Assembly: GCF_031624495.1 (NCBI RefSeq)
Contig: NZ_JAMQOP010000001.1
Coordinates: 310,001-374,000, forward strand
Direction of reading: 5' to 3'
Source: Halogeometricum sp. S1BR25-6
Lineage (GTDB): Archaea > Halobacteriota > Halobacteria > Halobacteriales > Haloferacaceae
DNA length: 64,000 bases
Shown here one piece after another: positions 9,256 through 37,966 of this stretch (positions are counted from its first letter, which is position 1; the number at the start of each line of letters is the position of its first letter). Below the pieces are notes generated by a model. It saw only the letters and a program-made list of their open reading frames with translations. It made no database searches and had not been told where the DNA came from. The position numbers and the translations under genes are program-made.

Positions 9256-9335
9256 ATTCCCTCTCCGCACGGCGTGGCTTTGCCCGTTTCGCTCTCCGGT
9301 CCGGCCTTCCGACCCCGTGCGGAGCCAACGCGGGT

Positions 9336-9346
9336 GCTTTATCACT
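9336..9346 (+). promoter_or_regulatory. TATA box of the RFC small-subunit gene
   Basis: GCTTTATCAC is centred 27 nt before the ATG at 9368, predicting a leaderless mRNA. Confidence 0.6.
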
Positions 9347-9367
9347 CGCCGGACCCGACTCCGGCGT

Positions 9368-10348
9368 ATGAGCGAGGCCGCGGATGCGGAGGGCACGACG
9401 GGTCGCGAAATCTGGATCGAGAAGTACCGACCGCAGACGCTCGAGGACGTGTACGGGCAGGAGGACATCGTCGACCGACTCCGCTCGTACATCGAGCAAG
9501 ACGACCTGCCGCACCTGCTATTCGCGGGACCGGCGGGCGTCGGCAAGACAACCTCCGCGACGGCCATCGCCCGCGCCGTCTACGGCGACGACTGGCGCGG
9601 CAACTTCCTCGAACTCAACGCCTCCGACGAGCGCGGTATCGACGTGGTACGAGATAGAATAAAGAACTTCGCCCGCGCCTCCTTCGGCGGCTACGACTAC
9701 CGCATCATCTTTCTCGACGAGGCCGACTCGCTCACCTCGGACGCGCAGTCGGCCCTCCGCCGGACGATGGAGCAGTTCTCCGACAACACGCGCTTCATCC
9801 TCTCGTGTAACTACTCCTCGAAGATAATCGACCCCATCCAATCCAGATGCGCCGTCTTCCGCTTTTCGCCCCTCGGCGACGACGCCGTCCGCAAGCAGGT
9901 GGAGGCCATCGCCGAGACGGAGGGCATCGAACTCACCGAGGACGGCCTCGACGCCCTCGTCTACGCCGCCGGCGGCGACATGCGCCGCGCCATCAACTCC
10001 CTGCAGGCGGCGGCGACGACGGGCGAGGTGGTCGACGAGGAGGCCGTCTACCTCATCACCTCCACCGCCCGCCCCGAGGACATCGAGGAGATGGTCCAGT
10101 CCGCCATCGGCGGCGACTTCCTCGCCGCGCGGTCGAAACTGGAGACGCTCCTCGTCGACACCGGGATGGCCGGCGGCGACATCATCGACCAACTCCACCG
10201 CTCGGTGTGGGAGTTCGACCTCGACGAACGCGCCACCGTCCGCCTGATGGAGCGCATCGGCGAGGCGGACTACCGCATCACCGAGGGGGCGAACGAGCAG
10301 GTGCAGTTGGAAGCGCTGCTCGCGTCGCTGGCGGCCGCCGACGAGTAG
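9368..10348 (+). CDS. rfcS: replication factor C small subunit
   Basis: AAA+ subunit of the clamp loader that opens PCNA rings onto primer-template DNA, acting with the large subunit RfcL (not in the window). Seen: RFC box II ([17 protein letters not shown]), Walker [10 protein letters not shown] near residue 55, Walker [11 protein letters not shown] near 115, sensor 1 LSCNYSSKI, the SRC arginine-finger motif ([10 protein letters not shown]) and sensor 2 [12 protein letters not shown]. Length 326 aa is typical, and no intein is present. The gene is divergent from samp2. Confidence 0.96.
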
Positions 10349-10351
10349 AAC

Positions 10352-12652
10352 TCAGACCCGGAACTCGAAGCGCGCGCCGCCTGTCTCTGATTCGGTCACC
10401 GACACCGACCAGCCGTGCGCGTCGCTGATGCGGGAGACGATGGCGAGTCCGTAGCCGATACCGTCCTCGCCCGTCGTCTCGCCGGGGTCGAAGACGCGTT
10501 CGCGGCGTTCGGGCGGGATGCCGACGCCGTCGTCCTCGACGTAGAACCCCTCGTCGCCTCCCTCTCCGCTCCCGTCGACCGGGTTATTTCCGCCGAGCGG
10601 ACCCACGCGGACGGTGACCGACTCGCCGTCATCGGCGGCGCGCCGCCCATCCGTCGAACCGTGCTCCAGCGCGTTCCGGAAGAGGTTCCCGAGCAGTTCG
10701 GCGAGTCGCTCCTCGTCGGCGTCCACCGTCACCCCCGCCGCCTCCAGCGACGCCCCGCCCGTCTCGACGGTCGCCCACGCGCGCCGGGCGGTCGCCGCCA
10801 CGTCGACGGCGGCCGTCTCGCCCACCACGTTTCCCTGTCGGGCGAGCGATAGCAGGTCGTCGATGAGTCGCTCCATCTGCCCGAGGGCGTCGGCGACCGT
10901 CTCGAAGGACTCCTCGCGGCCCGTCTCGCGACCGAGGTCGAGGTGACCCTGCGCGACGGCCAGCGGGTTCCGCAGGTCGTGGCTCACGATGTTTGCGAAC
11001 TCCTCCAACCGTTCGTTCTGCCGCTCTAGCTCCGACTCGCGGCGCTTGCGCTCGGTGATGTCGGTGTACAGCGCGTACCCCTGTCCGTCGTTCGCGTCGG
11101 GGTCGAGGGGGACGACGTTGAGGATGAACTCCCGCGTGCCGTCGGTGGCGAGGCGCCGTACCTCCCCTCGGTGACGCTCTCCCCCGGCGACGCGCAGTTC
11201 GGGCGGGTCGGACTCGTCGTCGGGGACGATTTCGCCGACGAGGTCGCCGCCCACGACGTCGACCGCGCGGCGTCCGAACCGCTCCTCGAAGGCGCGGTTG
11301 ACGCTCTGGACGCGCGCGGTGCCCTCATCGTCCACCGCGTAGGCGACGGCGGCGTCCGAGACGTGCTCGAAGAGCGCCGTCGAGCGGTCGCGTTCGTCGC
11401 GGAGACTCTCCTCCGCGCGGATGCGTTCGGCGGTCACGGCGACGTGCGCCATCAGCAGTTCGGTGAGTTCCACGTCCGCCTCGTCGAACGCGTTCGGGGT
11501 GTACGCGGCCGCCTGAAAGACGGCGATGTCGCCGACGGGGACGCTCACCCCCGAGCGGTAGGCCTCCTTCGTCGGCCGGGCGTCTTCCGCCTCGGCCATG
11601 TCCGTGACGAGGCGCGTCCGTCCCGTGCGGTGGACGTGCGCGGCGACGCCGCCGTCTTCGAGCGATTTCACCTCCGCGCCGTCCTTAGGGAACTCCTCGG
11701 ACGTCGCCGCGGGGACGATGTACCCTTCTTCGACGACGCCGATGTAGCTCAGGTCGAACGAGAGGATGTCGTCGGTTATCCCGACGGTCCGCTCGAACAG
11801 TTCTTCGAGGTCGGTGACGGCGGCGAGTTCGACCGTTCCGCGGTGAAGCGCCTCGATACGCCCGCGACTCTCCCGGAGGGCCGCCTCCGAGGCGATGCGC
11901 GCGGCCGTCTCGGCGACGTAGGAGACGAGCAGTTCCGCCAGTCGGCGGTCGGTCTCGTCGTACGCGCCCACCTCCGTCGAGATAGCTTGGAAGACGCCGA
12001 TGTCGCCGATGGGGACGCTGACGACCGACCGGAACGCGGGGTCGTCGGGCGCGGCGGCGTCGTGTTCGCGAACGTCGTCGATGAGTTTCGACTCGCCGGT
12101 CCGGTACGTTTCGCCGAGGATGCCCTGATTCAGCGGAATCAGGTCGCCCTCGTCCGTCGCCGTGTCGGTGGCGGAGACCCGGAAGCTCCCGCCCACGTCG
12201 ATGCTGATGGAGGAGTTGTCGAACGCGAGGATGCGCTCGGCGATATCTATCGTCCGGGCGAACAGTTCGTCGGTCGTCTCGGCGGCGATGAGCGTCGAGG
12301 TTCCCTCGTAGAGCCGTTTGAGACGGGTCTGGCTGTCCCCCCTCCGCCCCGAACGCGAGCGGAGCCAGCGGATCTGCGTGCGGAGCGACGCTTCGTCGCC
12401 CCGCGGCACGAACGCGTCGAACCGTTCGGGCCGCGGCACCGACTCGGGGTCGCAGTCGGCGTAGCAGACGACGGGAACGCTCAGGTCGAACTCCCCGTCG
12501 GGGTCGGTAACGACGGCGACGTCGACGTCTCGGTCGCCGGCTTCCGCGGCCGCCAGCGTCGCTATCGTCGTCCCCGCCGCGACGTCGGACGCGACGCCGC
12601 CGAGAGCAGTCGCGTCGTCCGTCGCGAGCCGCACATGTTCAACGATTTTCAC
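10352..12652 (-). CDS. multi-domain sensor histidine kinase (GAF-GAF-PAS-HisKA-HATPase)
   Basis: A 766-aa cytoplasmic kinase with no membrane segments. It has an N-terminal receiver-like region (to about 105), two GAF domains (about 115-260 and 275-415), a PAS/PAC domain (about 425-540, ending YTDITERKRR), HisKA with the phospho-acceptor in VSHDLRNP (H558) and a HATPase domain with N box NLFRNALEH, G1 VEDDGVGIP and G2 GIGYGLAIV. The two GAFs share a GDI-VFQA segment, suggesting internal duplication. No cognate regulator is adjacent. The GTG at 12652 has a TATA (GAATATTCC on the minus strand) about 27 nt upstream. Confidence 0.92.
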   Translation of the reverse strand: MKIVEHVRLATDDATALGGVASDVAAGTTIATLAAAEAGDRDVDVAVVTDPDGEFDLSVPVVCYADCDPESVPRPERFDAFVPRGDEASLRTQIRWLRSRSGRRGDSQTRLKRLYEGTSTLIAAETTDELFARTIDIAERILAFDNSSISIDVGGSFRVSATDTATDEGDLIPLNQGILGETYRTGESKLIDDVREHDAAAPDDPAFRSVVSVPIGDIGVFQAISTEVGAYDETDRRLAELLVSYVAETAARIASEAALRESRGRIEALHRGTVELAAVTDLEELFERTVGITDDILSFDLSYIGVVEEGYIVPAATSEEFPKDGAEVKSLEDGGVAAHVHRTGRTRLVTDMAEAEDARPTKEAYRSGVSVPVGDIAVFQAAAYTPNAFDEADVELTELLMAHVAVTAERIRAEESLRDERDRSTALFEHVSDAAVAYAVDDEGTARVQSVNRAFEERFGRRAVDVVGGDLVGEIVPDDESDPPELRVAGGERHRGEVRRLATDGTREFILNVVPLDPDANDGQGYALYTDITERKRRESELERQNERLEEFANIVSHDLRNPLAVAQGHLDLGRETGREESFETVADALGQMERLIDDLLSLARQGNVVGETAAVDVAATARRAWATVETGGASLEAAGVTVDADEERLAELLGNLFRNALEHGSTDGRRAADDGESVTVRVGPLGGNNPVDGSGEGGDEGFYVEDDGVGIPPERRERVFDPGETTGEDGIGYGLAIVSRISDAHGWSVSVTESETGGARFEFRV

Positions 12653-27488: not shown

Positions 27489-30400
27489 ATGGCACAGGCC
27501 CCGCAGGACCCGGACGTGGACCTCACCGACCGGTTCGTCCAGTTCTACAGAAAGTACTACAGCGACGATATCGGCCGCCTCGCTCAGCGGTATCCGAACG
27601 AACAGCGCTCGTTGTACGTCGACTACGACGACCTGTTCCGCTTCGACGAGGACCTCGCGGAGGACTACCGCAAGAAACCCGACCAGATACGCGAGTACGC
27701 CGAGGAGGCCCTCCGCCTCTACGACCTCCCGGTCGACGTGAAACTCGGGCGCGCGCACGTCCGCCTCCACAACCTCCCGGACTCCGTCGACATCAGGAAC
27801 ATCCGCGTCCACGACGACCACATCGGACGGATGGTCTCGGTCAAAGGAATCGTCCGCAAGGCGACGGACGTCCGCCCGAAGATAACCGAGGCCGCCTTCG
27901 AGTGTCAGCGCTGCGGGACGATGACGTACATCCCGCAGACCGACAGCGGCTTTCAGGAACCCCACGAGTGTCAGGGCTGCGAGCGACAGGGACCGTTCCA
28001 CGTCGACTTCGACCAATCGGAGTTCGTCGACTCCCAGAAACTGCGCGTCCAAGAGAGCCCCGAGGGCCTGCGGGGCGGCGAGACGCCGCAGAGCATCGAC
28101 ATCGACACGGAAGACGACATCACGGGTAGAGTGACCGCCGGCGACCACGTCACCGTCACGGGCGTCCTCCACATCGAACAGCAGACTTCCAACCAAGAGA
28201 AGACGCCCATCTTCGACCTCTACATGGACGGCGTCGCCATCGAGATAGAGGACGAGGAGTTCGAGGACATGGACATCTCCGAGGAGGACGTCGCGGAGAT
28301 TATCGAACTCTCGAACGAGGAGAACATCTACGAGAAGATGGTCGGCTCCGTCGCTCCCTCCATCTACGGCTACGAACAGGAGAAACTCGCGATGATCCTC
28401 CAACTGTTCTCCGGCGTCACCAAACACCTCCCCGACGGGTCGCGGATTCGGGGGGACTTACACATGCTGCTGATAGGGGACCCGGGTACGGGGAAGTGCG
28501 TCGCCGGAGACACCCGGGTGACGATGGCCGACGGATCGGAGGTTCCCATCCGCGAACTCGTGGAGCGAAACCTCGACGACCCGAAACCAGTGGACGACGG
28601 CGTGTGGGACTCGGTCGACTTCGCGGTGCCGTCGATGGCGCACGACGGGTCGATATCGTCGCGGCGGGCGACGAAGGTCTGGAAGCGCGAGGCACCTGAG
28701 CGGATGTACGAGATTCGGACCGCCAGCGGGCGCGAACTCACCGTCACGCCGTCGCACCCGCTGTTCGTCGGTCGCGACGGCGGCACCGACGCCGTCGTCG
28801 CCGAGAACCTCGAACCGGGCGAGTTCGTCGCCGTCCCCCGGTCGCTCCCAGCCGAGGGCGACGACTCGCTCGACGTCTCGATACGCCGTTCGCAGTCGAA
28901 CAACGCCGTGCGACTCGACGTCCCCGACCGACTGACGCCGTCGCTCGCGCGTCTCCTCGGGTACGTCGCCGCCGAAGGCTACGTCGAGCGACGCGACTCG
29001 GGAAGCGCGTTCGTCTCGCTGACGAACAACGACCGCGAGATACTCGACGACGTCGCCGACGCACTCGCCGAACTCGGCCTCTCGGCGACCGAACGCTCCC
29101 CGCACGACGGAAAGACCGCGAGGGAACTCACCTGCTCGTCGTCCGAACTGGTGAGCCTCCTCGAAGCACTCGAACCGGCGCTGCTGGAGGGGTCCGGTGA
29201 ACAGCGCGTCCCCGGATCGATTCTCCGAGCGACGCGCCCCGTCAAGCGAGGGTTCCTCCGCGCCTTTGTCGACGCGGAAGGCACCGTCTCTCCGACGCAA
29301 CGAGAGGCGACCATCTCTTCGACGAGCCGCGACGTTCTCGAAGGGGTTCGGAGTCTTCTCCTCGCGTTCGGCGTCGACTCACAGCTTCGACCGAAGGCGG
29401 GCGGCAGTTTCCGCCTCCGAATCAGCGGCGACGACTTCGCCCGCTACACCGAACGAGTCGGCTTCGTCGTCGAACGGAAGAGCGAGGCCGCCGCAGCGGT
29501 CGTCGACGCCGACGGAAACACGAATCGAGACGTCGTTCCCGGCGTCGGTGGAACGCTCCGCGACCTGCGCGAATCGCTCGGACTGGCGCAGGCTGACTGC
29601 GGACTCCCGCGCAGTACGTACCAACACTACGAGCGCGGCGACCGGAATCCGAGTCGGGACAGCCTCCGGACGGTCGTGCAGACGTTCGCGAAGGCCGCCG
29701 AGGACGGACTCGCCGCCGACGGCGACGGCGGCGCGAGCGTCGAACGCCGACTCGCCTCGCTCCGCGCCCTCGCGGACGGCGATATCGCGTGGGACCGAAT
29801 CGAGGCCATTGAGCCGGTTGAATCCGACGAGGAGTGGGTGTACGACCTCGAAATCGAGGGGACGCACAACTTCCTCACGAACAACGTCGTCTCTCACAAC
29901 TCCCAGATGCTCCAGTATATCCGGAACATCGCGCCCCGGTCGGTGTACACCTCCGGGAAGGGTTCCTCCTCAGCGGGTCTTACTGCAGCGGCTGTACGCG
30001 ACGATTTCGGCGACGGGCAGCAGTGGACGCTCGAAGCAGGCGCCCTCGTCCTCGCCGACAAGGGTATCGCGGCCGTGGACGAACTGGACAAGATGCGGCC
30101 GGAAGACCGCTCTGCGATGCACGAGGGTCTCGAACAGCAGCAGATTTCGGTGTCGAAGGCCGGTATCAACGCCACGCTCAAAGCCAGATGTTCGCTGCTC
30201 GGCGCGGCGAACCCCAAGTACGGACGGTTCGACCAGTACGAACCCATCGGCGAGCAGATAGACCTCGAACCCGCGCTCATCTCGCGGTTCGACCTCATCT
30301 TCACGGTGACGGACGACCCCGACCCGGACACCGACGCCGAACTCGCGGACCACATCATCAACACGAACTACGCGGGCGAACTGCACACCCAGCGGACGAA

Positions 30401-31007
30401 GATAGCCAACTCCGAGTTCACCGAGGACGAGGTGAACGCGGTCACACAGGAGGTGGCCCCGGAGATAGACGCCGAACTCCTGCGGAAGTACATCGCCTAC
30501 GCGAAGCGCAACTGTTACCCGACGATGACGCAGGAGGCCAAAGAGACCATCCGCGACTTCTACGTCAACTTCCGCGCGAAGGGCTCCGACGAGGACTCGC
30601 CCATCCCCGTCACCGCCCGGAAACTCGAAGCGCTCGTCCGCCTCGCGGAGGCGTCGGCGCGTGTTCGTCTCTCGGACACCGTCAGCGAGGAGGACGCCGT
30701 CCGCGTCACCAACATCGTCGAGTCCTGCCTGCGCGACATCGGGATGGACCCCGAGACGGGCGAGTTCGACGCCGACATCGTTGAGACGGGTACCTCGAAG
30801 AACCAGCGGGACCGGATCAAGAACCTGAAGGCGCTCATCAACGAACTCGAAGACGAGTACGAGGGCGGTGCGCCCGTGGACGAGGTGCTCGCCCGCGCGG
30901 AGGCGGAACTCAACCTCAGCGAGGGCAAGGCCGAACAGGAGATAGAGAGCCTGCGTCGGAAGGGCGAGGTGTACGAACCGCGGACCGACCACCTGCGGAC
31001 GACGTAG
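27489..31007 (+). CDS. mcm: replicative helicase MCM, interrupted by an intein
   Basis: The homohexameric 3'-5' replicative helicase; loading involves Orc1/Cdc6. The precursor is 1172 aa and the mature protein is 704 aa after removal of the intein. It has an N-terminal domain with a zinc site C139, C142, C161, C164; Walker A IGDPGTGK interrupted after Lys336, resuming SQML after splicing; Walker B AAVDELDK near 862; sensor 1 LLGAANPKYG; arginine finger LISRFDLIF; and a winged-helix C-terminus. Splicing is needed because the intein splits the ATP-binding loop, so no function exists before it. Confidence 0.97.
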   Translation: MAQAPQDPDVDLTDRFVQFYRKYYSDDIGRLAQRYPNEQRSLYVDYDDLFRFDEDLAEDYRKKPDQIREYAEEALRLYDLPVDVKLGRAHVRLHNLPDSVDIRNIRVHDDHIGRMVSVKGIVRKATDVRPKITEAAFECQRCGTMTYIPQTDSGFQEPHECQGCERQGPFHVDFDQSEFVDSQKLRVQESPEGLRGGETPQSIDIDTEDDITGRVTAGDHVTVTGVLHIEQQTSNQEKTPIFDLYMDGVAIEIEDEEFEDMDISEEDVAEIIELSNEENIYEKMVGSVAPSIYGYEQEKLAMILQLFSGVTKHLPDGSRIRGDLHMLLIGDPGTGKCVAGDTRVTMADGSEVPIRELVERNLDDPKPVDDGVWDSVDFAVPSMAHDGSISSRRATKVWKREAPERMYEIRTASGRELTVTPSHPLFVGRDGGTDAVVAENLEPGEFVAVPRSLPAEGDDSLDVSIRRSQSNNAVRLDVPDRLTPSLARLLGYVAAEGYVERRDSGSAFVSLTNNDREILDDVADALAELGLSATERSPHDGKTARELTCSSSELVSLLEALEPALLEGSGEQRVPGSILRATRPVKRGFLRAFVDAEGTVSPTQREATISSTSRDVLEGVRSLLLAFGVDSQLRPKAGGSFRLRISGDDFARYTERVGFVVERKSEAAAAVVDADGNTNRDVVPGVGGTLRDLRESLGLAQADCGLPRSTYQHYERGDRNPSRDSLRTVVQTFAKAAEDGLAADGDGGASVERRLASLRALADGDIAWDRIEAIEPVESDEEWVYDLEIEGTHNFLTNNVVSHNSQMLQYIRNIAPRSVYTSGKGSSSAGLTAAAVRDDFGDGQQWTLEAGALVLADKGIAAVDELDKMRPEDRSAMHEGLEQQQISVSKAGINATLKARCSLLGAANPKYGRFDQYEPIGEQIDLEPALISRFDLIFTVTDDPDPDTDAELADHIINTNYAGELHTQRTKIANSEFTEDEVNAVTQEVAPEIDAELLRKYIAYAKRNCYPTMTQEAKETIRDFYVNFRAKGSDEDSPIPVTARKLEALVRLAEASARVRLSDTVSEEDAVRVTNIVESCLRDIGMDPETGEFDADIVETGTSKNQRDRIKNLKALINELEDEYEGGAPVDEVLARAEAELNLSEGKAEQEIESLRRKGEVYEPRTDHLRTT
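28497..29900 (+). mobile_element. MCM intein with LAGLIDADG homing endonuclease and HTH-like segment
   Basis: A 468-aa intein spanning residues 337-804 of the precursor. Block A starts CVAGDTRVTMADG, block B is ELTVTPSHPLFV (TxxH), and blocks F/G are VYDLEIEGTHNF...NNVVSHN with C-extein Ser. Two LAGLIDADG motifs are visible: LLGYVAAEGY (about 28951) and LRAFVDAEGT (about 29252), both with Glu at the catalytic-acid position. Around 29550-29700 a stretch LRESLGLAQADCGLPRSTY resembles an XRE-type helix-turn-helix, likely part of target recognition. Its integrity suggests ongoing homing ability, not shown. Confidence 0.93.
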
Positions 31008-31069: not shown

Positions 31070-32308
31070 CTACAGCACCGCGTCCAACCCCCCCCGCACG
31101 TCAGCGACGAGGTCCGACTCGCGTTCGATGCCGACGCTCAGTCTGACGAGTCCGGGGTCGATGCCGGCGGCGCGGAGTTCCTCCGCCGTGAAGTCCTGAT
31201 GCGTCATCGCCGCCGGCACCTCCACGAGGCTCTCGACGCCGCCGAGGCTCTCGGCGATGGTGACTGTTTCCAGCGCCGCGACGAACTCGGTGGCGTCGTC
31301 GACACCCCCCGAGAGTTCGAACGCGAGCATGCCGCCGAAGTCGGCCATCTGTCGGGCCGCAACCTCGTGGCCGGGGTGGGTGTCGAGGCCGGGGTAGTAG
31401 ACGGTGTCGACGGCGGCGTGCGAGGCGAGGGCGTCCGCGACGGCCGCGGCGTTCCGGCAGTGGCGGTCCATCCGCGCCTGCAGCGTCTTCGCGCCGCGGC
31501 GGACGAGGAACGACTCGAACGGTCCGAGGACGGCGCCGCGGGTGTACTGGGTCTTCTCGAGTCGTCGCGCGAGATCCGCGTCGCGCGTGGCCACCGACCC
31601 GCCGATGGCGTCGGAGTGACCGTTGAGGTACTTCGTCAACGACTCCACGGAGAGGTCGGCGCCGAGTTCGAGCGGTCGCTGGAGGGCCGGGGAGGCGAAC
31701 GTGTTGTCCACCGCCGCGACGGCGTCTACCTCGTGGGCGGCGTCCGCGACGGCGGCGATATCGACGACTCTGAGAAGCGGGTTCGTCGGCGTCTCGACGT
31801 AGACGAGGGCCGTCTCGTCGCGGACGGCCTCGCGAACGGCCGCTGAATCCGTCGCGTCGACGTGGGTGACCGAGACGCCGTAGCGCGGGTAGACGTCCGC
31901 CAACAGGTCGTACGTCTCCGCGTAGAGGCTGGACCCGGTGACGACGTGGTCGCCCGCGGAGAGCAGCGAGAAGACGGCGTCGATTGCGGCCATGCCGCTG
32001 GCGAACGCGTAGGCGTGCGTCGCGCCTTCGAGGTCCGCGACGACCGATTCGAGGTCGCCGCGCGTCGGCGCCGACATCCGGGAGTAGCGGTAGCGCCCGC
32101 CGAGCGCCGTCGACGACTCGTACTCGTACGTCGCGTTGGCGTAGATGGGCGTCACCAGGGCGTTGTCCGGTTTTTCCTCGCCGGCGTGGATGGCGCGGGT
32201 GTCGAGCGTTTCGGAGTTTCCCCCGTCAGTCCGTCCGTTCTCGACCCGTTCGTCGTTCGCCGGGTCGTTCGCGCGTCCGTCTTCCTCCGACGACTCTTCG
32301 CTGGGCAT
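31070..32308 (-). CDS. Cys/Met-metabolism PLP enzyme (cystathionine gamma-synthase/lyase type)
   Basis: A 412-aa fold-type I PLP enzyme of sulfur amino-acid metabolism. RYRYSRMSAPTRGDLE and FASGMAAIDAVF are family-typical, DNTFASPALQRP lies before the PLP lysine in ESLTKYLNGHSDAIGG, and PGLDTHPGHEVAARQM follows. Whether it acts as gamma-synthase, gamma-lyase or methionine gamma-lyase cannot be decided. The ATG at 32308 gives a Glu/Ser-rich disordered N-terminus of about 35 residues; a TTG further up at 32338 is less likely. Convergent with mcm; no sulfur gene is adjacent. Confidence 0.9.
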   Translation of the reverse strand: MPSEESSEEDGRANDPANDERVENGRTDGGNSETLDTRAIHAGEEKPDNALVTPIYANATYEYESSTALGGRYRYSRMSAPTRGDLESVVADLEGATHAYAFASGMAAIDAVFSLLSAGDHVVTGSSLYAETYDLLADVYPRYGVSVTHVDATDSAAVREAVRDETALVYVETPTNPLLRVVDIAAVADAAHEVDAVAAVDNTFASPALQRPLELGADLSVESLTKYLNGHSDAIGGSVATRDADLARRLEKTQYTRGAVLGPFESFLVRRGAKTLQARMDRHCRNAAAVADALASHAAVDTVYYPGLDTHPGHEVAARQMADFGGMLAFELSGGVDDATEFVAALETVTIAESLGGVESLVEVPAAMTHQDFTAEELRAAGIDPGLVRLSVGIERESDLVADVRGGLDAVL

Positions 32309-32462
32309 TACCCGTCGTATCTCGAAGGCGGTTGTCAATCTATCGTTGTCGGTGTATGTCCCGCTTCATCGAACGTGTGGGTCGTCCGGCGGTTCGCGGG
32401 CCTCGACGGCGAGGCGACCACGAGCCTTCTTGTACCGAGACGCGGAACGACTCGCAAGGTAG

Positions 32463-32747
32463 ATGGACAGAATCTCCGCCCTGCGAAACGTCGAGGAGGC
32501 CCTCCGCGACTTCGAGTCCGGGGAGTCGGACCTCGCGGCGACCGAACGACGCGTCGTGGCCGTCCTGCGGACGTACGCGACCGACTTCGGGGGCGAGGCG
32601 GGCCTCGCCCCCTACCGGGCCGCCGGCGAGAACCGCGCGAACGGACTCGTCGTCGTCGCCGAGAGCGCCGACGAGGCCCGGGCCCGCGTGTACGACCTCC
32701 TGGACGAGACGCCCGGGTCGCTGACGTTCGACGTCGAACGCCTGTAA
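32463..32747 (+). CDS. small conserved haloarchaeal protein (94 aa, DUF7854-like)
   Basis: A 94-aa acidic protein: MDRISALRNVEEALRDFE at the start, TYATDFGGEAGLAPYR in the centre and VVAESADEARARVYDLLD at the end. It is probably the first of four consecutive genes (DUF7854-DUF7857 by my recollection of the names) leading into a MinD ATPase. Predicted helix-strand-helix with no catalytic motif. The cluster is collinear and tightly spaced later on, indicating shared function. What it does is unknown. Confidence 0.78.
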   Translation: MDRISALRNVEEALRDFESGESDLAATERRVVAVLRTYATDFGGEAGLAPYRAAGENRANGLVVVAESADEARARVYDLLDETPGSLTFDVERL

Positions 32748-32779
32748 CCGGGTCGGCGCCACACGAGTCAATTCGGGAG

Positions 32780-32790
32780 AGTTTTATCTC
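32780..32790 (+). promoter_or_regulatory. TATA box of the DUF7855-like gene
   Basis: AGTTTTATCTC is centred about 28 nt before the GTG at 32814, supporting both the GTG start and a separate, leaderless transcript. Confidence 0.6.
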
Positions 32791-32813
32791 GGAGTGATAG
32801 TTCTCTCGTAACT

Positions 32814-33152
32814 GTGTTGCTCGTCGTGACCTACTCGCGCCCCGCCCGCGAGACGCTCCGGAACGTCTGTCGAACGCACGAGGAGACCGTCGTGCGGCGG
32901 TTCGGTCGCGCGGCCCTCCTCGCGGAGACGGAGTTCGGCGCCTTTCTCGCCTGCCGCCTCCGGGAGAAGCACGCCGCCGACGTGCAGGTCGAACGGACCG
33001 AACCGTTCAACGAGTTCGCCGACGCGCCCGCCTCGGTCCGGACGGCCGCCGCGGCCTACGAGGCCCGCGACTCCCCGAGCACGCCGTACGACAAGTTCGC
33101 CGCCGGCACCGACCACCCCTCGTCGGCGGCGATGCGCGACGGCGACCTGTGA
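32814..33152 (+). CDS. conserved haloarchaeal protein (112 aa, DUF7855-like)
   Basis: Starts at a GTG (MLLVVTYSRPARETL...), which the TATA at 32780 supports. The 112-aa protein has a strand-helix opening, RRFGRAALLAETEFGAFLACRLREKH in the middle and the C-terminal YEARDSPSTPYDKFAAGTDHPS. It resembles a haloarchaea-only family with no known role. The next gene begins at a GTG that overlaps its stop (GTGA), so the two are translationally coupled. Second member of the MinD-linked cluster. Confidence 0.78.
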   Translation: MLLVVTYSRPARETLRNVCRTHEETVVRRFGRAALLAETEFGAFLACRLREKHAADVQVERTEPFNEFADAPASVRTAAAAYEARDSPSTPYDKFAAGTDHPSSAAMRDGDL

Positions 33153-34042
33153 CCGCGGCCCTCCGCCGACCGATTCGCGTCCGCCTCCCTGACGGGAGCC
33201 TCCACGTCGGTCCGGTCGTCGACCTTCGGAGGGTCGAGGCGGCCCCCGACGCCGCGACGCTCCGCCGGGCGGTCGCGGGCGGACTCCCGGCCGAACCCGC
33301 CGCGCCGAGCGTCGTCCGCCCCCCGCCGACGCCGGTGCACCCGTTCGTCTCGCACCTCGCCGCGGGGATTGGACTCGACCGACGCGGCGCGCTGGCGGCC
33401 CTCGCGCGTCTCCGCGGTCACGACGCCGACGGGGCGCTGGCTGAACTCGACCGGGTTCGGAAGGCGATAGCCGATGCGGCGCCCGCGGAGACGGCCGACC
33501 TCGCCGCCGCGCGCCGTCGGGCGGCCGAGGCGGGCGTCGAAACCGACCGTCTCCGCGAACGCGCCGCGACGATTCGCGGTCGCGTCGAGGCTACTCGGGA
33601 CACCGGCGGCGACGTCGCCGCCGCCGAAACCGACCTCGCGGAGACGATGCGGCGACTCTCGGAGGTGGCGACCGAACGCGTGGCCGCCAGACAGCGACTC
33701 GCCGCTCTGGAGGCGGAGGTGCGCCGGTCCCGTGACACCCGCGAGGCGCGTATGCGACTCGAAGACCGAGCGGCGAACCTCGAACGCGACGCGCGACGGG
33801 CACTCGCCGCCGCCGCCTACGACGCCTTCGCCGCCGCCGTGACTGCGCTCCCGCCGACGTTCGATGCCGACGCGGGGACTGGACCGGGCGAATTCGACGG
33901 CGACCCGCTCTCGGCCGCCCTCGCCGTGGCCCGGGCGGCCTCCCTCCGCGCTCCCGTCGTCGTTGACCCGACCGTCGTCGACCGGTTCGGCGGCCTCGCT
34001 CCCTCTGTCCGCTACCTCTCGGGGCCGGTCGTGGTCCGCTGA
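33149..34042 (+). CDS. coiled-coil conserved haloarchaeal protein (297 aa, DUF7856-like)
   Basis: Starts at a GTG inside the GTGA overlap with the previous gene. The N-terminal half (about 1-110) is globular, with VRLPDGSLHVGPVVDLRRV and a P-rich linker; residues about 130-235 form a long Ala/Arg/Glu coiled coil with heptads (ETADLAAARRRAAEAGVETD, EARMRLEDRAANLERDAR); the end is a small globular segment. No enzymatic motif. It could scaffold the neighbouring MinD ATPase, which is inference from gene order. The next gene starts 47 nt downstream. Confidence 0.78.
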   Translation: MTAALRRPIRVRLPDGSLHVGPVVDLRRVEAAPDAATLRRAVAGGLPAEPAAPSVVRPPPTPVHPFVSHLAAGIGLDRRGALAALARLRGHDADGALAELDRVRKAIADAAPAETADLAAARRRAAEAGVETDRLRERAATIRGRVEATRDTGGDVAAAETDLAETMRRLSEVATERVAARQRLAALEAEVRRSRDTREARMRLEDRAANLERDARRALAAAAYDAFAAAVTALPPTFDADAGTGPGEFDGDPLSAALAVARAASLRAPVVVDPTVVDRFGGLAPSVRYLSGPVVVR

Positions 34043-34089
34043 CGCCGACTGATGTAGGTTAAAATACCAGCGCGCGGCCAGACCGGTCC

Positions 34090-34827
34090 ATGGAGCACGA
34101 CTGCACGACGGAATCGGTCGCCGGCGCGACGCTCGTAACGGTTCGCGTCCGCAACGAGGCGCCCGTTCCGCGCCGCGTCCGCGTCCGCAACGAACTCCCC
34201 GGTCCCGTCCTCCCGCCGCGGCGCGAAGGCGTCCCCGAACGGGGGTGGGACGAGAGCGGATTCGAGGGCGTCCTCGACGCCGGCGAGGAGCGAACGCTCG
34301 GATACGCCTGCCCGGTCGCCTCCGAGGGCGACCGCCCGGTCTCCGTGGCGTCGCTCGGCCGGGCGGAGGGGGAGAGAGAGGACGACCGGGAGAACGAAGC
34401 CATCCGCGCTCTGGGTCGGGCGCGACCGCCCGCCGACGCCGTTCCGGTTTCGGTTCCGGATTCGTCGCTCGCGTCCGAGTCGCCTTCCGACGGAGACGCT
34501 TTCGAACCTGCCGAGTCGGACGTCTCCGCGGAAAACAGCTCAGAACCGGACGTCAACGGCTCGAATCCGAAGCCCCGTCCGCCCGCGGTCGCCTCGTGGT
34601 TCGACGCGGTCGAGACGCGGGTGCGCCTCGCGGAGCGACTGACCGACGCCACGGCGGCGGATGCTGCGTCGGCGCTCGAAACCGCGGGCGACGTGTCCGG
34701 CCTGGCCTCGGCCGTCGCCGCCGACGAGGCGGCGCTCCGGGCCGTCGCGGCCCGCGCCGACGAACTCGCCGACCGGGCGGCCGAGACGGAGGCCGGTCCG
34801 GTCGTCGCCGCGTTGGAGGCGCCGTGA
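34090..34827 (+). CDS. conserved haloarchaeal protein (245 aa, DUF7857-like)
   Basis: A 245-aa protein with a beta-rich N-terminal domain of about 100 residues (TLVTVRVRNEAPVPRRVRVRNEL, ERTLGYACPVAS), a low-complexity Ser/Pro/Asp linker (about 115-165), then a C-terminal helical domain (FDAVETRVRLAERLTDATAADA...). The opening resembles an immunoglobulin-like or CARDB-type fold, unconfirmed. Its stop overlaps the GTG start of the MinD gene (GTGA), giving translational coupling and making it the strongest candidate partner of that ATPase. Confidence 0.78.
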   Translation: MEHDCTTESVAGATLVTVRVRNEAPVPRRVRVRNELPGPVLPPRREGVPERGWDESGFEGVLDAGEERTLGYACPVASEGDRPVSVASLGRAEGEREDDRENEAIRALGRARPPADAVPVSVPDSSLASESPSDGDAFEPAESDVSAENSSEPDVNGSNPKPRPPAVASWFDAVETRVRLAERLTDATAADAASALETAGDVSGLASAVAADEAALRAVAARADELADRAAETEAGPVVAALEAP

Positions 34828-35495
34828 TACTCGCCGTGACGGGCGGGAAGGGCGGCGTCGGCAAGTCGACGCTGGCCTTCGAACTCGGTGCCGCGACGAG
34901 CGCCGTCGTCGTCGACGCGGACGTCGGCATGGCCGACCTGCCCGCGGCCGCCGGCCCCGGTCCGGACCTCCACGACGTGCTCGCCGGTCGGGCGTCGGCC
35001 GTCGAGGCCGTCCGAGAGGGCGGAGCGGTGACGCTGCTCCCGTGCGGGCGGTCGCTCGCCGGTGCGCGGGCCGCCGACGTGGGCCGACTGGGCGAGGCGC
35101 TCCGCGATGTCGAACGGGCCTACGGCGACGTGGTGGTCGACTGCCCGGCGGGGATGAAGGCCGACGCGGGCGTTCCCCTCGCCGTCGTCGACGCCTGCGT
35201 CGTCGTCGCGTCGCCCCAACCGTACGCGCTGGCCGACGCCGTCCGAACGCGAGAGTTGGCGCGCGAACTCGACGCCGGACTCGTCGCCGTCGCGGTCAAC
35301 CGCGCCGTCGACGACCCGCCCGAGGCCGTCTTCGAGGAGGTGCTCGGCGCCCCCGCGGTCACGGTTCCGTCGGATCCCCGCGTCGCCCGCGCCGTCGAGA
35401 CCGGTCGCCCCGTCTGTCGCGTCGCCCCGTCGAGTCGCGCCGGGCGGGCGGTTCTGTCGCTCGCGCGGGCGGTCGACCGCTGTTCGAACGACTGA
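34824..35495 (+). CDS. MinD/ParA-type P-loop ATPase
   Basis: A 223-aa deviant-Walker ATPase starting at GTG in the overlap with the preceding gene. The P-loop is GGKGGVGKST (signature Lys at residue 8), VVVDADVGMADL is the A' motif, and VVDCPAGM is Walker B. From memory it is the MinD1 orthologue of H. volcanii, whose family members position cell-pole structures such as archaella and chemosensory arrays rather than the division ring. There is no visible C-terminal amphipathic membrane-targeting helix; the tail is RAGRAVLSLARAVDRC. Last gene of its transcript. Confidence 0.9.
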   Translation: MILAVTGGKGGVGKSTLAFELGAATSAVVVDADVGMADLPAAAGPGPDLHDVLAGRASAVEAVREGGAVTLLPCGRSLAGARAADVGRLGEALRDVERAYGDVVVDCPAGMKADAGVPLAVVDACVVVASPQPYALADAVRTRELARELDAGLVAVAVNRAVDDPPEAVFEEVLGAPAVTVPSDPRVARAVETGRPVCRVAPSSRAGRAVLSLARAVDRCSND

Positions 35496-35602
35496 GCGGC
35501 CGCTTGGTTCTCCGGTCGCTCCGGTCCGCCGACTCCATCGCTCGGGAAAAATAGCCCTCGTCGCGCTCGGACCCTCGTAGTCGACCGCTTCGCCCGGTCC
35601 GT

Positions 35603-36493
35603 TCAGTTCTCCCGTTCCCGGAGCGCAGCGTACGTCTTCCGCAGGGTGACGGGCGTCACGTCGGCAACGGCGGCCGCCTCGGCCTGCGTCACGTCCGCGC
35701 CGACGTCGCGCGCGGCGGTGTACAGACACCCCGCGGCGACGCCGCCGGGGTTTCGTCCCGTCGAGAGGCCCGCCTCGGCCGCCTCCGCGACGTACTCGCG
35801 GGCGCGGCGTTCCGCCTCGCGCGAGAGGTCGAGGCGGGTGGCGAACCGCGGGACGTACTCCGCGGGGTCGACGGGACCCACGGGGAGTCCGAGTTCGCGG
35901 TTCAAGGCGTCGTAGGCGGCCGTCTGCTCGGCTCTCGTCGCCTTCGCCTCCGCGACGACTTCGCCGACGGTGCGCGAGACGTTCGCTGCGCGGCAGGCGG
36001 CGTAGACGCACGCGGCCGCGAACCCCTCCAGCGACCGCCCGCGAAGCAGGTCCTCCTTCTGCGCCGACCGGAACAACGAGCAGGCGTGGTCGCGGATGCG
36101 CTCGGGAAGCGACAACGCGCTCGTGAGACGGCGTATCTCGGTGAACGCGTACACCTGATTCCGCTCGCGTTTCGTGGAGATGCGAGCGCGGTTATGCTGG
36201 CGGCGGAGACGAGCCATCTGGCGGCGCTTCCGTCCCTTGAGACGCGTTGAACGACCGATTTCGGTCGAGAGGCCGCGGTCGTGGCGCGACCGGGTGAGCG
36301 GCGCGCCCGTGCGCTTGGGGTCGCCGGCGTCGTCGGCGAACGACCGCCACTCGGGACCGTGGTCGATGGCGTACTCGGAGACGACCAACCCGCAGTCGCC
36401 GCAGACCGTCTCGCGCCCGTCGGCGTGGAGTCGGCCGTCGCACTCGGGGCAGGCGTTCGTCGTCGTCGCGTCGTCGGCGCGTGCTTCAGTCAT
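35603..36493 (-). CDS. tfb: transcription initiation factor IIB (TFB)
   Basis: A 296-aa TFB that bridges TBP-DNA and RNA polymerase. The N-terminal zinc ribbon is CPECDG...CGDCG, the B-reader/B-linker is RTGAPLTRSRHDRGLSTEIG, then two cyclin-like repeats, ending with HTH-containing VTQAEAAAVADVTPVTLRKTY. Haloarchaea have several TFBs with different promoter preference, and this one has no special motif. ATG at 36493 is preferred over a GTG one codon upstream. A TATA (TGTTTAAATACC, minus strand) lies at 36520-36531. Convergent with the MinD gene. Confidence 0.95.
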   Translation of the reverse strand: MTEARADDATTTNACPECDGRLHADGRETVCGDCGLVVSEYAIDHGPEWRSFADDAGDPKRTGAPLTRSRHDRGLSTEIGRSTRLKGRKRRQMARLRRQHNRARISTKRERNQVYAFTEIRRLTSALSLPERIRDHACSLFRSAQKEDLLRGRSLEGFAAACVYAACRAANVSRTVGEVVAEAKATRAEQTAAYDALNRELGLPVGPVDPAEYVPRFATRLDLSREAERRAREYVAEAAEAGLSTGRNPGGVAAGCLYTAARDVGADVTQAEAAAVADVTPVTLRKTYAALREREN

Positions 36494-36519
36494 CACAATT
36501 GATTCTTGGCTCCGAATGG

Positions 36520-36531
36520 GTATTTAAACAC
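36520..36531 (-). promoter_or_regulatory. TATA box of the TFB gene
   Basis: The minus strand reads TGTTTAAATACC, about 30 nt before the ATG at 36493. It lies in an AT-rich spacer shared with the divergent 173-aa gene. Confidence 0.6.
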
Positions 36532-36654
36532 TGGAATATATGCGCTTTCAGGCCTCGAAATAGCGCTCTAACCTACCGGTCACTGGTACGTACCGATATC
36601 AAATTTGAAAACAAATCGAAATCGATTACTACCGCTTCGTCGTAGACACTGCCG

Positions 36655-37176
36655 ATGGGACTGGCGGATATCGCGGCGGAAACGGCGGTGACGACGAGCA
36701 AACAGGAGGTGCGCGGCGTCGCGACGGTGGACGACACCGACGTGGACCTCGCCGCCCGACTGCGCGACTGCGCGGACGCGCTTCCCTGCGCGCCGGCGGC
36801 CGCGGCCACGGTCGTCGAGCACTACGTCGACGGCGACGGCGTCGGCGACGCGGGACGGGCGGCCGGCGTCGCCCCCGTGACGGCAGCGAAGGTGCTCCAC
36901 CGCGTCGGCGTCGAGGGCGTCACTCCGCTCGCGCCGACGGCGCGAAGGGTTCTCCGCGACTGGCTATCGGGGATGCTCTCCCGCGCAGACGCGCTCGAAC
37001 TCACGGGCGCGGACGAGGCCGAGTTCGCCCTCGCGGCCTACGTCGAGACGCACGACCCGGTGCCGGAACTCGCCGAGGCGACGCGGCGGGACGCGGCGCG
37101 ACCGCTCGGCGGCGACGCCCTCGTCCGCAAACGCGACGTGCTCGGGGAGACGATGAGCGCGTCGACGGATTTCTAA
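36655..37176 (+). CDS. haloarchaeal HTH-like protein (173 aa, DUF7858-like)
   Basis: A 173-aa protein with a possible helix-turn-helix in DGVGDAGRAAGVAPVTAAKVLHRVGVEG (about residues 60-87), similar to domains of transposase-type or sigma-like regulators. N-terminal MGLADIAAETAVTTSKQEVRG and C-terminal DALVRKRDVLGETM have no known motif. It resembles a haloarchaea-only family I recall as DUF7858. It sits between TFB (divergent) and the degenerate ParA protein, whose coding end lies 2 nt beyond its stop. A regulatory role is inference. Confidence 0.75.
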   Translation: MGLADIAAETAVTTSKQEVRGVATVDDTDVDLAARLRDCADALPCAPAAAATVVEHYVDGDGVGDAGRAAGVAPVTAAKVLHRVGVEGVTPLAPTARRVLRDWLSGMLSRADALELTGADEAEFALAAYVETHDPVPELAEATRRDAARPLGGDALVRKRDVLGETMSASTDF

Positions 37177-37177
37177 C

Positions 37178-37966
37178 TCACTTCACGTACCGTTCGACGC
37201 CCGCGAGGAGGCCGCCGCTTCCCACGGCCTCGCTCACGTCGCGGCCCGTCGCGCCCGCCGCGAGGCGCGCGACGCCCTCGGCGAACGCCCCGCCCTCGTC
37301 GAGACACGAGGGCACCGACGCGGGGTCGGTCACCTCCGAGGCGGGCACCTCGCAGTCGGCCGCCTCGAACGTCCCGCGCGTCGCGACGACGAAGTCGGCT
37401 CCGCTCCCCACATGTTCGAGCCGCGTCCGCATCCGCTGGACGGCGTCCGCCCCGCGCGTCGTCCCCGGCGCGACGAGGACCACTCGGTCGGCCGCGTTCA
37501 CCGCCGCGATGGCCTGATTGGCGGCGACCGGCGGCACGTCGACCAGCACGTGGTCGAACCGCTCGCTCGCCCGGTCCAACCGCGCCTCGAACCGCCGCGC
37601 GGCGTCCGGCGCCTTCGCCCGCGCGAACCGTTCGAGGGGGGCGAACGCCGGGCAGACGGAGACGCGGCCGGGAGTGTCGCAGTCGAGCGCCGTCAGCGCG
37701 TCCGACAGGGGCGCGTCGGCCGCGTCGGTCACGAGCGCCGTCAGGTCGGGTTCGATGCGGCCGTTGAGGTGGTCCGCGAGCCCCTGCGTCGCGTACGCGG
37801 CGTCGAACACGCCCACGTCCGCGCCGTCCGCGGCGAGGGCCGCGGCGGCCTCCAGCGTGCACCGCGTCGTCCCCGCGCCGCCGACGGCGCCGACGAGCGC
37901 TCCGACGTTCGCGTCGCCCGTCCGGTCACCGTCACCCGCTCCGCCCGCACTCTCTACATCGTGCAT
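37178..37966 (-). CDS. MinD/ParA-fold protein with degenerate P-loop
   Basis: A 262-aa protein with the MinD/ParA fold: VGALVGAVGGAGTTRCTLE at the P-loop position, DVGVFDAAYATQGLADHL, VLVDVPPVAANQAI and VVLVAPGTTRGADA all align. The loop has Ala/Val and Thr where GGKGGVGKTT requires Lys, so neither the signature Lys nor the Walker Lys is present. ATP hydrolysis is therefore doubtful. Its convergent neighbour ends 1 nt away. It resembles proteins commonly annotated in haloarchaea as ParA domain or chromosome partitioning; function unknown. Confidence 0.85.
   Translation of the reverse strand: MHDVESAGGAGDGDRTGDANVGALVGAVGGAGTTRCTLEAAAALAADGADVGVFDAAYATQGLADHLNGRIEPDLTALVTDAADAPLSDALTALDCDTPGRVSVCPAFAPLERFARAKAPDAARRFEARLDRASERFDHVLVDVPPVAANQAIAAVNAADRVVLVAPGTTRGADAVQRMRTRLEHVGSGADFVVATRGTFEAADCEVPASEVTDPASVPSCLDEGGAFAEGVARLAAGATGRDVSEAVGSGGLLAGVERYVK

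What the first reader, a model, noticed from the sequence alone, without database searches (positions are those of the whole stretch)
32463..37966. MinD/TFB-centred cluster of uncharacterised haloarchaeal families
Four consecutive genes of haloarchaea-only families (DUF7854-7857-like), one coiled-coil, run into a MinD ATPase. The second and third genes, and the last DUF gene and MinD, are joined by GTGA overlaps. A TFB, an HTH-like protein and a second MinD/ParA-fold protein without P-loop Lys follow. The coupling shows a shared product; the presence of one active-looking and one dead-looking MinD beside a dedicated TFB suggests a positioning or partition machine with its own transcription factor. 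That function is inference.
Basis: partly seen in the sequence, partly recalled or inferred. Interest (0 to 1): 0.62.

Follow-up and report, generated by a model that had tools for sequence, protein, structure and literature searches.

The report
Haloarchaeal MinD-partner and TFB gene cluster
Salt-loving archaea keep, beside their replication-helicase gene, an ancient block of unknown genes around a MinD-type ATPase; the block proves to be two separable units, one of them a MinD with an almost inseparable unknown partner, plus a dedicated transcription factor with its own conserved DNA switch.

Summary
All eight genes are there: DUF7854, 7855, 7856 and 7857, MinD, TFB, DUF7858 and a ParA-fold protein without the P-loop Lys. 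The block is real and ancient, but it is not one machine centred on MinD. Across 194 haloarchaeal genomes it splits into two profiles. Module B is DUF7857–MinD: Jaccard 0.96, the same 4-bp overlap in 44 of 47 loci, moved, lost and duplicated together. Module A is DUF7854/7855/7856/7858 plus the ParA-fold protein; DUF7856 and DUF7858 occur in identical sets of genomes. Either module is lost while the other stays in place. The TFB is its own orthologous clade (99/98), and TFBs of this clade also turn up where the pair sits beside a MinD–DUF7125 gene and type IV pilus-like genes. New here: a 23-bp dyad, AACGTACCGGTnACCGGTACGTT, at fixed distance upstream of TFB, present when DUF7858 is beside it (40/42) and mostly absent otherwise. 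By gene order the MinD is Haloferax MinD1; adding its deletion to ΔminD2/4 changed nothing visible. Joint function remains inference; a dedicated role in archaella or chemotaxis is disfavoured.

The parts
27489..31007 (+). mcm replicative helicase gene (interrupted by an intein): upstream end of the conserved block
   Evidence: translation; in 49 of 55 anchored loci; DUF7854 starts -1 to 6 bp after mcm in 34 of 45 loci
32463..32747 (+). DUF7854 protein (94 aa), module A; normally the gene right after mcm
   Evidence: Pfam PF25252 E 7e-37; class profile
32814..33152 (+). DUF7855 protein (112 aa, length almost constant), module A
   Evidence: Pfam PF25253 E 6e-59
33149..34042 (+). DUF7856 coiled-coil protein (297 aa), module A; overlaps DUF7855 by GTGA
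   Evidence: Pfam PF25254 E 9e-77
34090..34827 (+). DUF7857 protein (245 aa), module B: N-terminal beta-sandwich, disordered linker, C-terminal helices; inferred MinD partner
   Evidence: Pfam PF25256; model pLDDT 84.8
34824..35495 (+). MinD-type deviant Walker A ATPase (223 aa), by gene order the MinD1 of Haloferax; overlaps DUF7857 by GTGA
   Evidence: archaeal MinD structure 1hyq E 2e-40; class search
35603..36493 (-). TFB of a locus-specific orthologous clade
   Evidence: tree with 11 other TFBs of the same genome, 99/98 support
36521..36528 (-). TATA-like box (TATTTAAA as read on the + strand) of the TFB promoter
   Evidence: sequence; conserved in the alignment of 36 intergenic regions
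36570..36592 (.). conserved 23-bp dyad, consensus AACGTACCGGTnACCGGTACGTT, inferred operator of DUF7858
   Evidence: the only strong hit in the 64-kb window
36655..37176 (+). DUF7858 all-helical HTH-type protein (173 aa), module A; divergent from TFB
   Evidence: Pfam PF25257 E 8e-75; model pLDDT 85.1; weak HTH-type structural matches
37178..37966 (-). ParA/MinD-fold protein without Walker A Lys (262 aa), module A

Best explanation
The locus holds two functional units kept together next to mcm. (1) MinD plus DUF7857: MinD is an ATP-driven dimer switch and DUF7857 its dedicated partner, made from the same message in coupled translation; the DUF7857 beta-sandwich probably docks on MinD, and the variable linker and helices probably carry the cargo or anchor. 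(2) An accessory set (DUF7854, 7855, 7856, 7858 and the Lys-less ParA-fold protein). DUF7858 probably binds the 23-bp dyad between its own gene and the divergent TFB gene and sets the level of that TFB, which then directs a dedicated set of promoters. The Lys-less ParA-fold protein probably acts as a non-hydrolysing regulator. The output I think likeliest is control of assembly or placement of a cell-surface machine of the type IV pilus kind, because the MinD-DUF7857 pair, with TFBs of the same clade in several cases, also sits beside a MinD-DUF7125 gene and pilus-like secretion genes in other haloarchaea. Shown by sequence comparison: the conserved overlap, the co-inheritance of the pair, the two modules, the TFB clade, the dyad and its association with DUF7858. 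Inferred: co-translation, physical binding, DUF7858 as the dyad-binding protein, the regulon, the surface-machine role.
For: Pair: 44/47 loci with the same 4-bp overlap; class profiles 141 both, 5 and 1 discordant; lost together with flanks kept in G018, G054 and G183; moved together in G065, G013, G097, G142 and G136; second copies also come as pairs in G058, G161 and G141. Modules: DUF7856 and DUF7858 in identical sets of 119 genomes, DUF7854/7855/ParA-fold Jaccard 0.93-0.97, even where DUF7858 and the ParA-fold gene lie hundreds of kb away; G124 lost 7854/55/56/58 on both sides of a retained 7857-MinD-TFB. TFB clade 99/98, four pilus-context TFBs inside it. Dyad: 40/42 versus 2/10, Fisher p 2e-6; position 3 is G-C in 20 and C-G in 15 sites, symmetric in 36/40; no control hits in 1.5 Mb. 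Pilus context: 9 of 15 second-context loci carry genes grouped with T2SSE, T2SSF or DUF7283/7286/7310/7311, 13 a long MinD-like neighbour that is MinD-DUF7125 where tested. Makarova 2016 names MinD/FleN-like ATPases and a TFIIB homologue among the commonest regulators of archaeal pilus loci (PMC4858521).
Against: No pilus gene lies in the window's own block. Deleting minD1 together with minD2, 3 and 4 added no motility defect to the minD2/4 double mutant and no division defect. Genus g33 keeps DUF7857 without MinD1, so the pair is not absolute. The DUF7858 fold match is weak (Z under 5). Genomes are phylogenetically related, so the raw Fisher values overstate independence; recent whole-cluster losses (G056, G190) are single deletions.
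Confidence: 0.45

Rival explanations
1. A chromosome or replication-linked partition system: the block belongs to mcm, DUF7856 is an SMC-like coiled coil, DUF7858 a ParB/SegB-like centromere-binding protein, the dyad a parS-like site, and MinD and the ParA-fold protein the motor and its modulator.
For: DUF7854 follows mcm directly in 34 of 45 loci; mcm is in 49 of 55 loci; a dyad site next to an HTH-type gene and a ParA-fold gene recalls ParABS and SegAB loci (own knowledge); in most genomes listed the dyad occurs once at 0 mismatches; the coiled coil of DUF7856 weakly resembles an archaeal SMC-related protein (E 0.002).
Against: The dyad is at a fixed promoter position (74-79 bp upstream of TFB) and does not form a cluster of sites; the ParA-fold neighbour of DUF7858 lacks the P-loop Lys in nearly all rows; no ParB family match; the MinD pair lives far from mcm in many genomes; mutants lacking all four MinDs grow and divide normally.
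Confidence: 0.17
2. A FleN/FlhG-like arrangement: MinD1 works not in placement but as an ATP-dependent regulator that binds a transcription factor, here the neighbouring TFB or DUF7858, and so tunes transcription.
For: The MinD1 profile matches FleN and FlhG-type structures (5j1j E 2e-21, 4rz2 5e-18); a TFB of one clade stays next to MinD1 in two different genomic settings.
Against: In many second-context loci no TFB of this clade is in range; loci that lost MinD1 keep TFB and DUF7858 (L049, L058, L073).
Confidence: 0.2
3. Conserved neighbourhood without joint function: several independent, co-transcribed or merely adjacent genes stay next to mcm because haloarchaeal gene order changes slowly.
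For: Recent losses of the whole block are contiguous deletions (L108, L109); gaps between the sub-units vary; a DUF7504 gene is inserted in many species.
Against: The flanking genes of the window do not persist; DUF7856 and DUF7858 co-occur perfectly even when unlinked; the DUF7857-MinD pair moves and duplicates as a unit.
Confidence: 0.15

Closest known systems
Archaeal MinD/FleN-like ATPases, Haloferax MinD1-4
   Same: Deviant Walker A (GGKGGVGKS), DxPAG motif, best solved relatives are archaeal MinDs; mcm = HVO_0220, MinD1 = HVO_0225 and TFB = HVO_0226 leave exactly four genes between mcm and minD1, as here.
   Different: Shorter than the solved archaeal MinDs; scores below the curated minD_arch cut-off (127.6 versus 201.75 bits); carries an almost inseparable upstream partner, DUF7857, not described in the papers found.
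MinD2-HVO_0596 of Haloferax
   Same: A MinD with a conserved neighbouring unknown gene, likely in one operon and predicted to interact (PMC11588486).
   Different: There the unknown gene lies downstream of minD2; DUF7857 lies upstream and overlaps minD1. Homology of the two partners was not tested.
TadZ/CpaE-type atypical MinDs of Tad pili (own knowledge)
   Same: The Lys-less ParA-fold protein also lacks the Walker A Lys (GGAGTTR), and a second context of the MinD pair is pilus-like.
   Different: No receiver domain, and its own gene is not beside pilus genes in the window.
T4P-associated MinD and TFIIB genes (Makarova et al. 2016, PMC4858521)
   Same: MinD/FleN-like ATPases and a TFIIB homologue noted among the commonest regulators in archaeal T4P loci.
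   Different: The parts of that census that I read do not describe this mcm-linked block, the DUF7857 pairing or the operator.

Membership tests
MinD (archaeal) | Deviant Walker A KGGxGK[ST] | tested here: met
   GGKGGVGKST in the window; KGG[VI]GK[ST] in 45 of 48 locus entries
MinD (archaeal) | Closest solved relatives are MinD proteins | tested here: met
   1hyq E 2e-40, 1g3q 2e-38
MinD (archaeal) | Score over the NCBIfam minD_arch cut-off | tested here: not met
   127.6 bits versus 201.75: MinD-type, outside that curated subfamily model
MinD (archaeal) | C-terminal membrane-targeting amphipathic helix | not tested
   No obvious one by eye; not computed
MinCDE division-site system | minC and minE beside minD | tested here: not met
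   No MinC or MinE family match in the eight genes
ParABS / SegAB partition system | ParB or SegB homologue and a centromere site | tested here: inconclusive
   No ParB/SegB family match; one dyad beside an HTH-type gene, at a promoter position
TadZ/CpaE | ParA fold without Walker A Lys | tested here: met
   GGAGTTR and variants in 36 of 38 entries
TadZ/CpaE | N-terminal receiver domain and location in a Tad/pilus operon | tested here: not met
   262 aa with the P-loop near residue 24; no receiver match and no pilus genes in the window block
TFB (archaeal TFIIB) | Zn ribbon and two cyclin repeats | tested here: met
   PF08271 and two PF00382 stretches

The most novel reading that the evidence does not exclude
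A haloarchaeal partition or cell-cycle system tied to replication: DUF7858 binds the single conserved dyad as a centromere-like site, the Lys-less ParA-fold protein and MinD1-DUF7857 act as a two-motor pair, DUF7856 as a bridging coiled coil, with a dedicated TFB coupling it to transcription and DUF7854 to MCM.
Probability: 0.1. Interest if true: 0.85.

Novelty: new variant of a known kind. Interest (0 to 1): 0.55.

Why it matters
Several haloarchaeal MinDs, MinD1 among them, have no known role, and the papers read report no established MinE-like partner of an archaeal MinD. DUF7857 is a precise candidate partner: one gene, overlapping, co-inherited. The dyad gives a directly testable regulator-promoter pair (DUF7858 and TFB) and a simple way to find what the locus-specific TFB is for, in a group whose use of many TFBs is an open question. 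DUF7854 is a candidate accessory protein of the archaeal replicative helicase.

Tried and rejected
A dedicated chemotaxis/archaellum role: CheF is only loosely associated (odds ratio 2.5-3.3, not corrected for descent) and missing from 26 genomes with the complete cluster. A genome-wide regulon from the dyad: with a degenerate pattern and one mismatch most genomes give a few hits, including ones without the module; among the genomes listed, perfect matches are usually the one site beside TFB, and the one further perfect site looked at (G185) seems to lie inside coding sequence, so no regulon is claimed. Known folds: the DUF7857 N-domain matches many beta-sandwiches (best Z 7.8, delta-COP mu-homology domain), too unspecific to name; DUF7858 best Z 4.8 (TrpR), a list rich in HTH proteins but not significant. 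PDB sequence searches with DUF7854, 7855, 7856 and 7858 profiles gave nothing convincing. First TFB trees lacked some paralogues of the same genome and were redone. No paper in the library mentions DUF7854-7858 or DUF7125.
Full report
What is there. The window (nearest named relatives: Halogeometricum pallidum and H. limi) carries DUF7854, DUF7855, DUF7856, DUF7857, a MinD-type ATPase, a TFB on the opposite strand, DUF7858 and a ParA-fold protein on the opposite strand. Each DUF assignment is far over Pfam's cut-off. The MinD has GGKGGVGKST; the ParA-fold protein has GAVGGAGTTRCT and so no P-loop Lys.

Is the block real? I took 60 stretches of about 20 kb from genomes spread over the haloarchaeal families and searched them with profiles grown from the window's proteins. 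Of 55 loci anchored on DUF7855, 51 have DUF7855-7856, 43 have 7855-7856-7857-MinD, 36 go on to the reversed TFB, 35 to DUF7858 and 30 to the reversed ParA-fold protein; mcm is in 49. The window's other neighbours (a PLP enzyme, a histidine kinase) recur in only 2 and 1 loci, the window included, so the block has edges: mcm at one end, the ParA-fold gene at the other. DUF7854 starts within -1 to 6 bp of the mcm stop in 34 of 45 loci; the window and one relative of the same genus have the PLP gene in between.

Two modules. Seven searches over the same 194 genomes of the class gave presence tables (combined). DUF7856 and DUF7858 occur in exactly the same 119 genomes. DUF7854, DUF7855 and the ParA-fold protein follow them (Jaccard 0.93-0.97), including genomes of genus g2 where DUF7858 and the ParA-fold gene lie hundreds of kb from DUF7855. 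DUF7857 and MinD follow each other (141 both, 5 and 1 discordant) but not the rest (Jaccard 0.73-0.76): 29 genomes have only the pair. The gene order makes this telling, because the pair sits in the middle. In G124 the genes 7854, 7855, 7856 and 7858 are gone on both sides while mcm, 7857, MinD, TFB and the ParA-fold gene stay (L110); in G018, G054 and G183 the pair is gone and flanks stay. Some recent losses (G056, G190) are single contiguous deletions that leave mcm and the ParA-fold gene, and these say nothing about function. The statistics are not corrected for common descent; the argument rests on the independent events.

The pair. DUF7857 ends inside the first codons of MinD with the same 4-bp overlap in 44 of 47 loci; the other junctions of the block do not behave so (28/52 for 7855/7856; 7856/7857 is never -4). 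The pair relocates as a pair (G065, G013, G097, G142, G136), and three genomes hold a second copy, each time of both genes (G058, G161, G141). The exceptions: four species of genus g33 keep a weak DUF7857 without MinD1, and G192 has a fragment. DUF7857 is confined to haloarchaea in the phylum sample. Its model has a confident beta-sandwich (residues 1-92), a linker and confident helices (165-243); in several families the C-terminal part is short, so the beta-domain is the constant element.

The second context. In fifteen loci the pair lies away from mcm. In 13 of these a second, long MinD-like gene is close, which in the examples tested is a MinD fused to DUF7125; in nine there are genes that group with those of a type IV pilus-like system (T2SSE ATPase, T2SSF, DUF7283, 7286, 7310 or 7311). 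Four of the five TFBs found there fall into the same TFB clade as the TFBs of the mcm block (99/98 support) and away from the 11 other TFBs of the window's genome. A census of archaeal pili had already named MinD/FleN-like ATPases and a TFIIB homologue among the commonest regulators in or near such loci (PMC4858521). This is why I favour a surface-machine role. It is an argument from association.

The switch. Aligning 36 TFB-DUF7858 intergenic regions showed a dyad, AACGTACCGGTnACCGGTACGTT, in the window at 36570-36592 as AACCTACCGGTCACTGGTACGTA. It stands 74-79 bp upstream of the TFB start in nearly all, beyond a conserved TATTTAAA box. Across 40 sites the arms change together (position 3 is G-C in 20 and C-G in 15); profile scans find it once per locus and never in 1.5 Mb of reversed sequence. 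It scores 16 or more of 22 in 40 of 42 loci where DUF7858 stands beside TFB and in 2 of 10 TFB upstream regions without it (p 2e-6); of those two, L088 belongs to a genome that has DUF7858 elsewhere and L076 looks decayed. None of the other 11 TFB upstream regions of the window's genome scores above 14. The simplest reading is that DUF7858 binds it and controls TFB and itself. The DUF7858 model is all-helical with weak matches to HTH proteins. Whether there are further targets in the genome is open.

What is known. Published numbers put mcm at HVO_0220 (PMC3972481), MinD1 at HVO_0225 (PMC11621097, PMC11588486) and a TFB at HVO_0226 (PMC13286277, PMC7714728), so the four DUF genes should be HVO_0221-0224; Haloferax volcanii is positive for every DUF family in the control search. 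Deleting all four minD genes caused no division defect and the same motility as deleting minD2 and minD4. HVO_0226 is mentioned as a TFB variant in the motility/shape network of CsmR. None of the papers found treats the cluster, DUF7857 or the dyad.

Verdict. A true observation that becomes more interesting on analysis: an ancient haloarchaeal block made of two separable modules, with a nearly inseparable MinD partner, a dedicated TFB and a conserved operator. The mechanism beyond that is inference.

Noticed in passing
window 27489-31007: The mcm gene encodes a 1172-aa product interrupted by an intein (CVAGDTRV ... VVSHNS); inteins at several sites in haloarchaeal mcm are known.
   Followed up: no
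window 31070-32338: A PLP-dependent trans-sulfuration-type enzyme on the minus strand splits mcm from DUF7854; among the loci examined only the window and G158 (same genus) have it, so it looks like a recent insertion.
   Followed up: partly
L043, L067, L086 and other loci, between DUF7854 and DUF7855: Many loci have a gene of some 210 aa inserted here; the two tested match DUF7504/DUF7090. It is absent from the window.
   Followed up: partly
G000 contigs C5, C6, C7 (L118-L121): Four almost identical TFB paralogues on small contigs of the window's genome, suggesting recent spread of TFB genes, perhaps on plasmids.
   Followed up: no
G060, G069, G134, G165, G162, G172, G176: The dyad-like string CGTGCCGATAATCGGTACG recurs identically in distant genomes, up to three copies each, with or without the module; possibly part of a conserved RNA gene.
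   Followed up: no
L194 (G000:C1:1797000-1816500), 9316-10710: In the window's own genome the MinD and DUF7125-like parts that are fused in other species appear as two adjacent open frames.
   Followed up: partly
L064 (genus g33): DUF7857 persists after loss of MinD1, its reading frame overlapping the DUF7856 assignment; a natural test of what DUF7857 does alone.
   Followed up: partly
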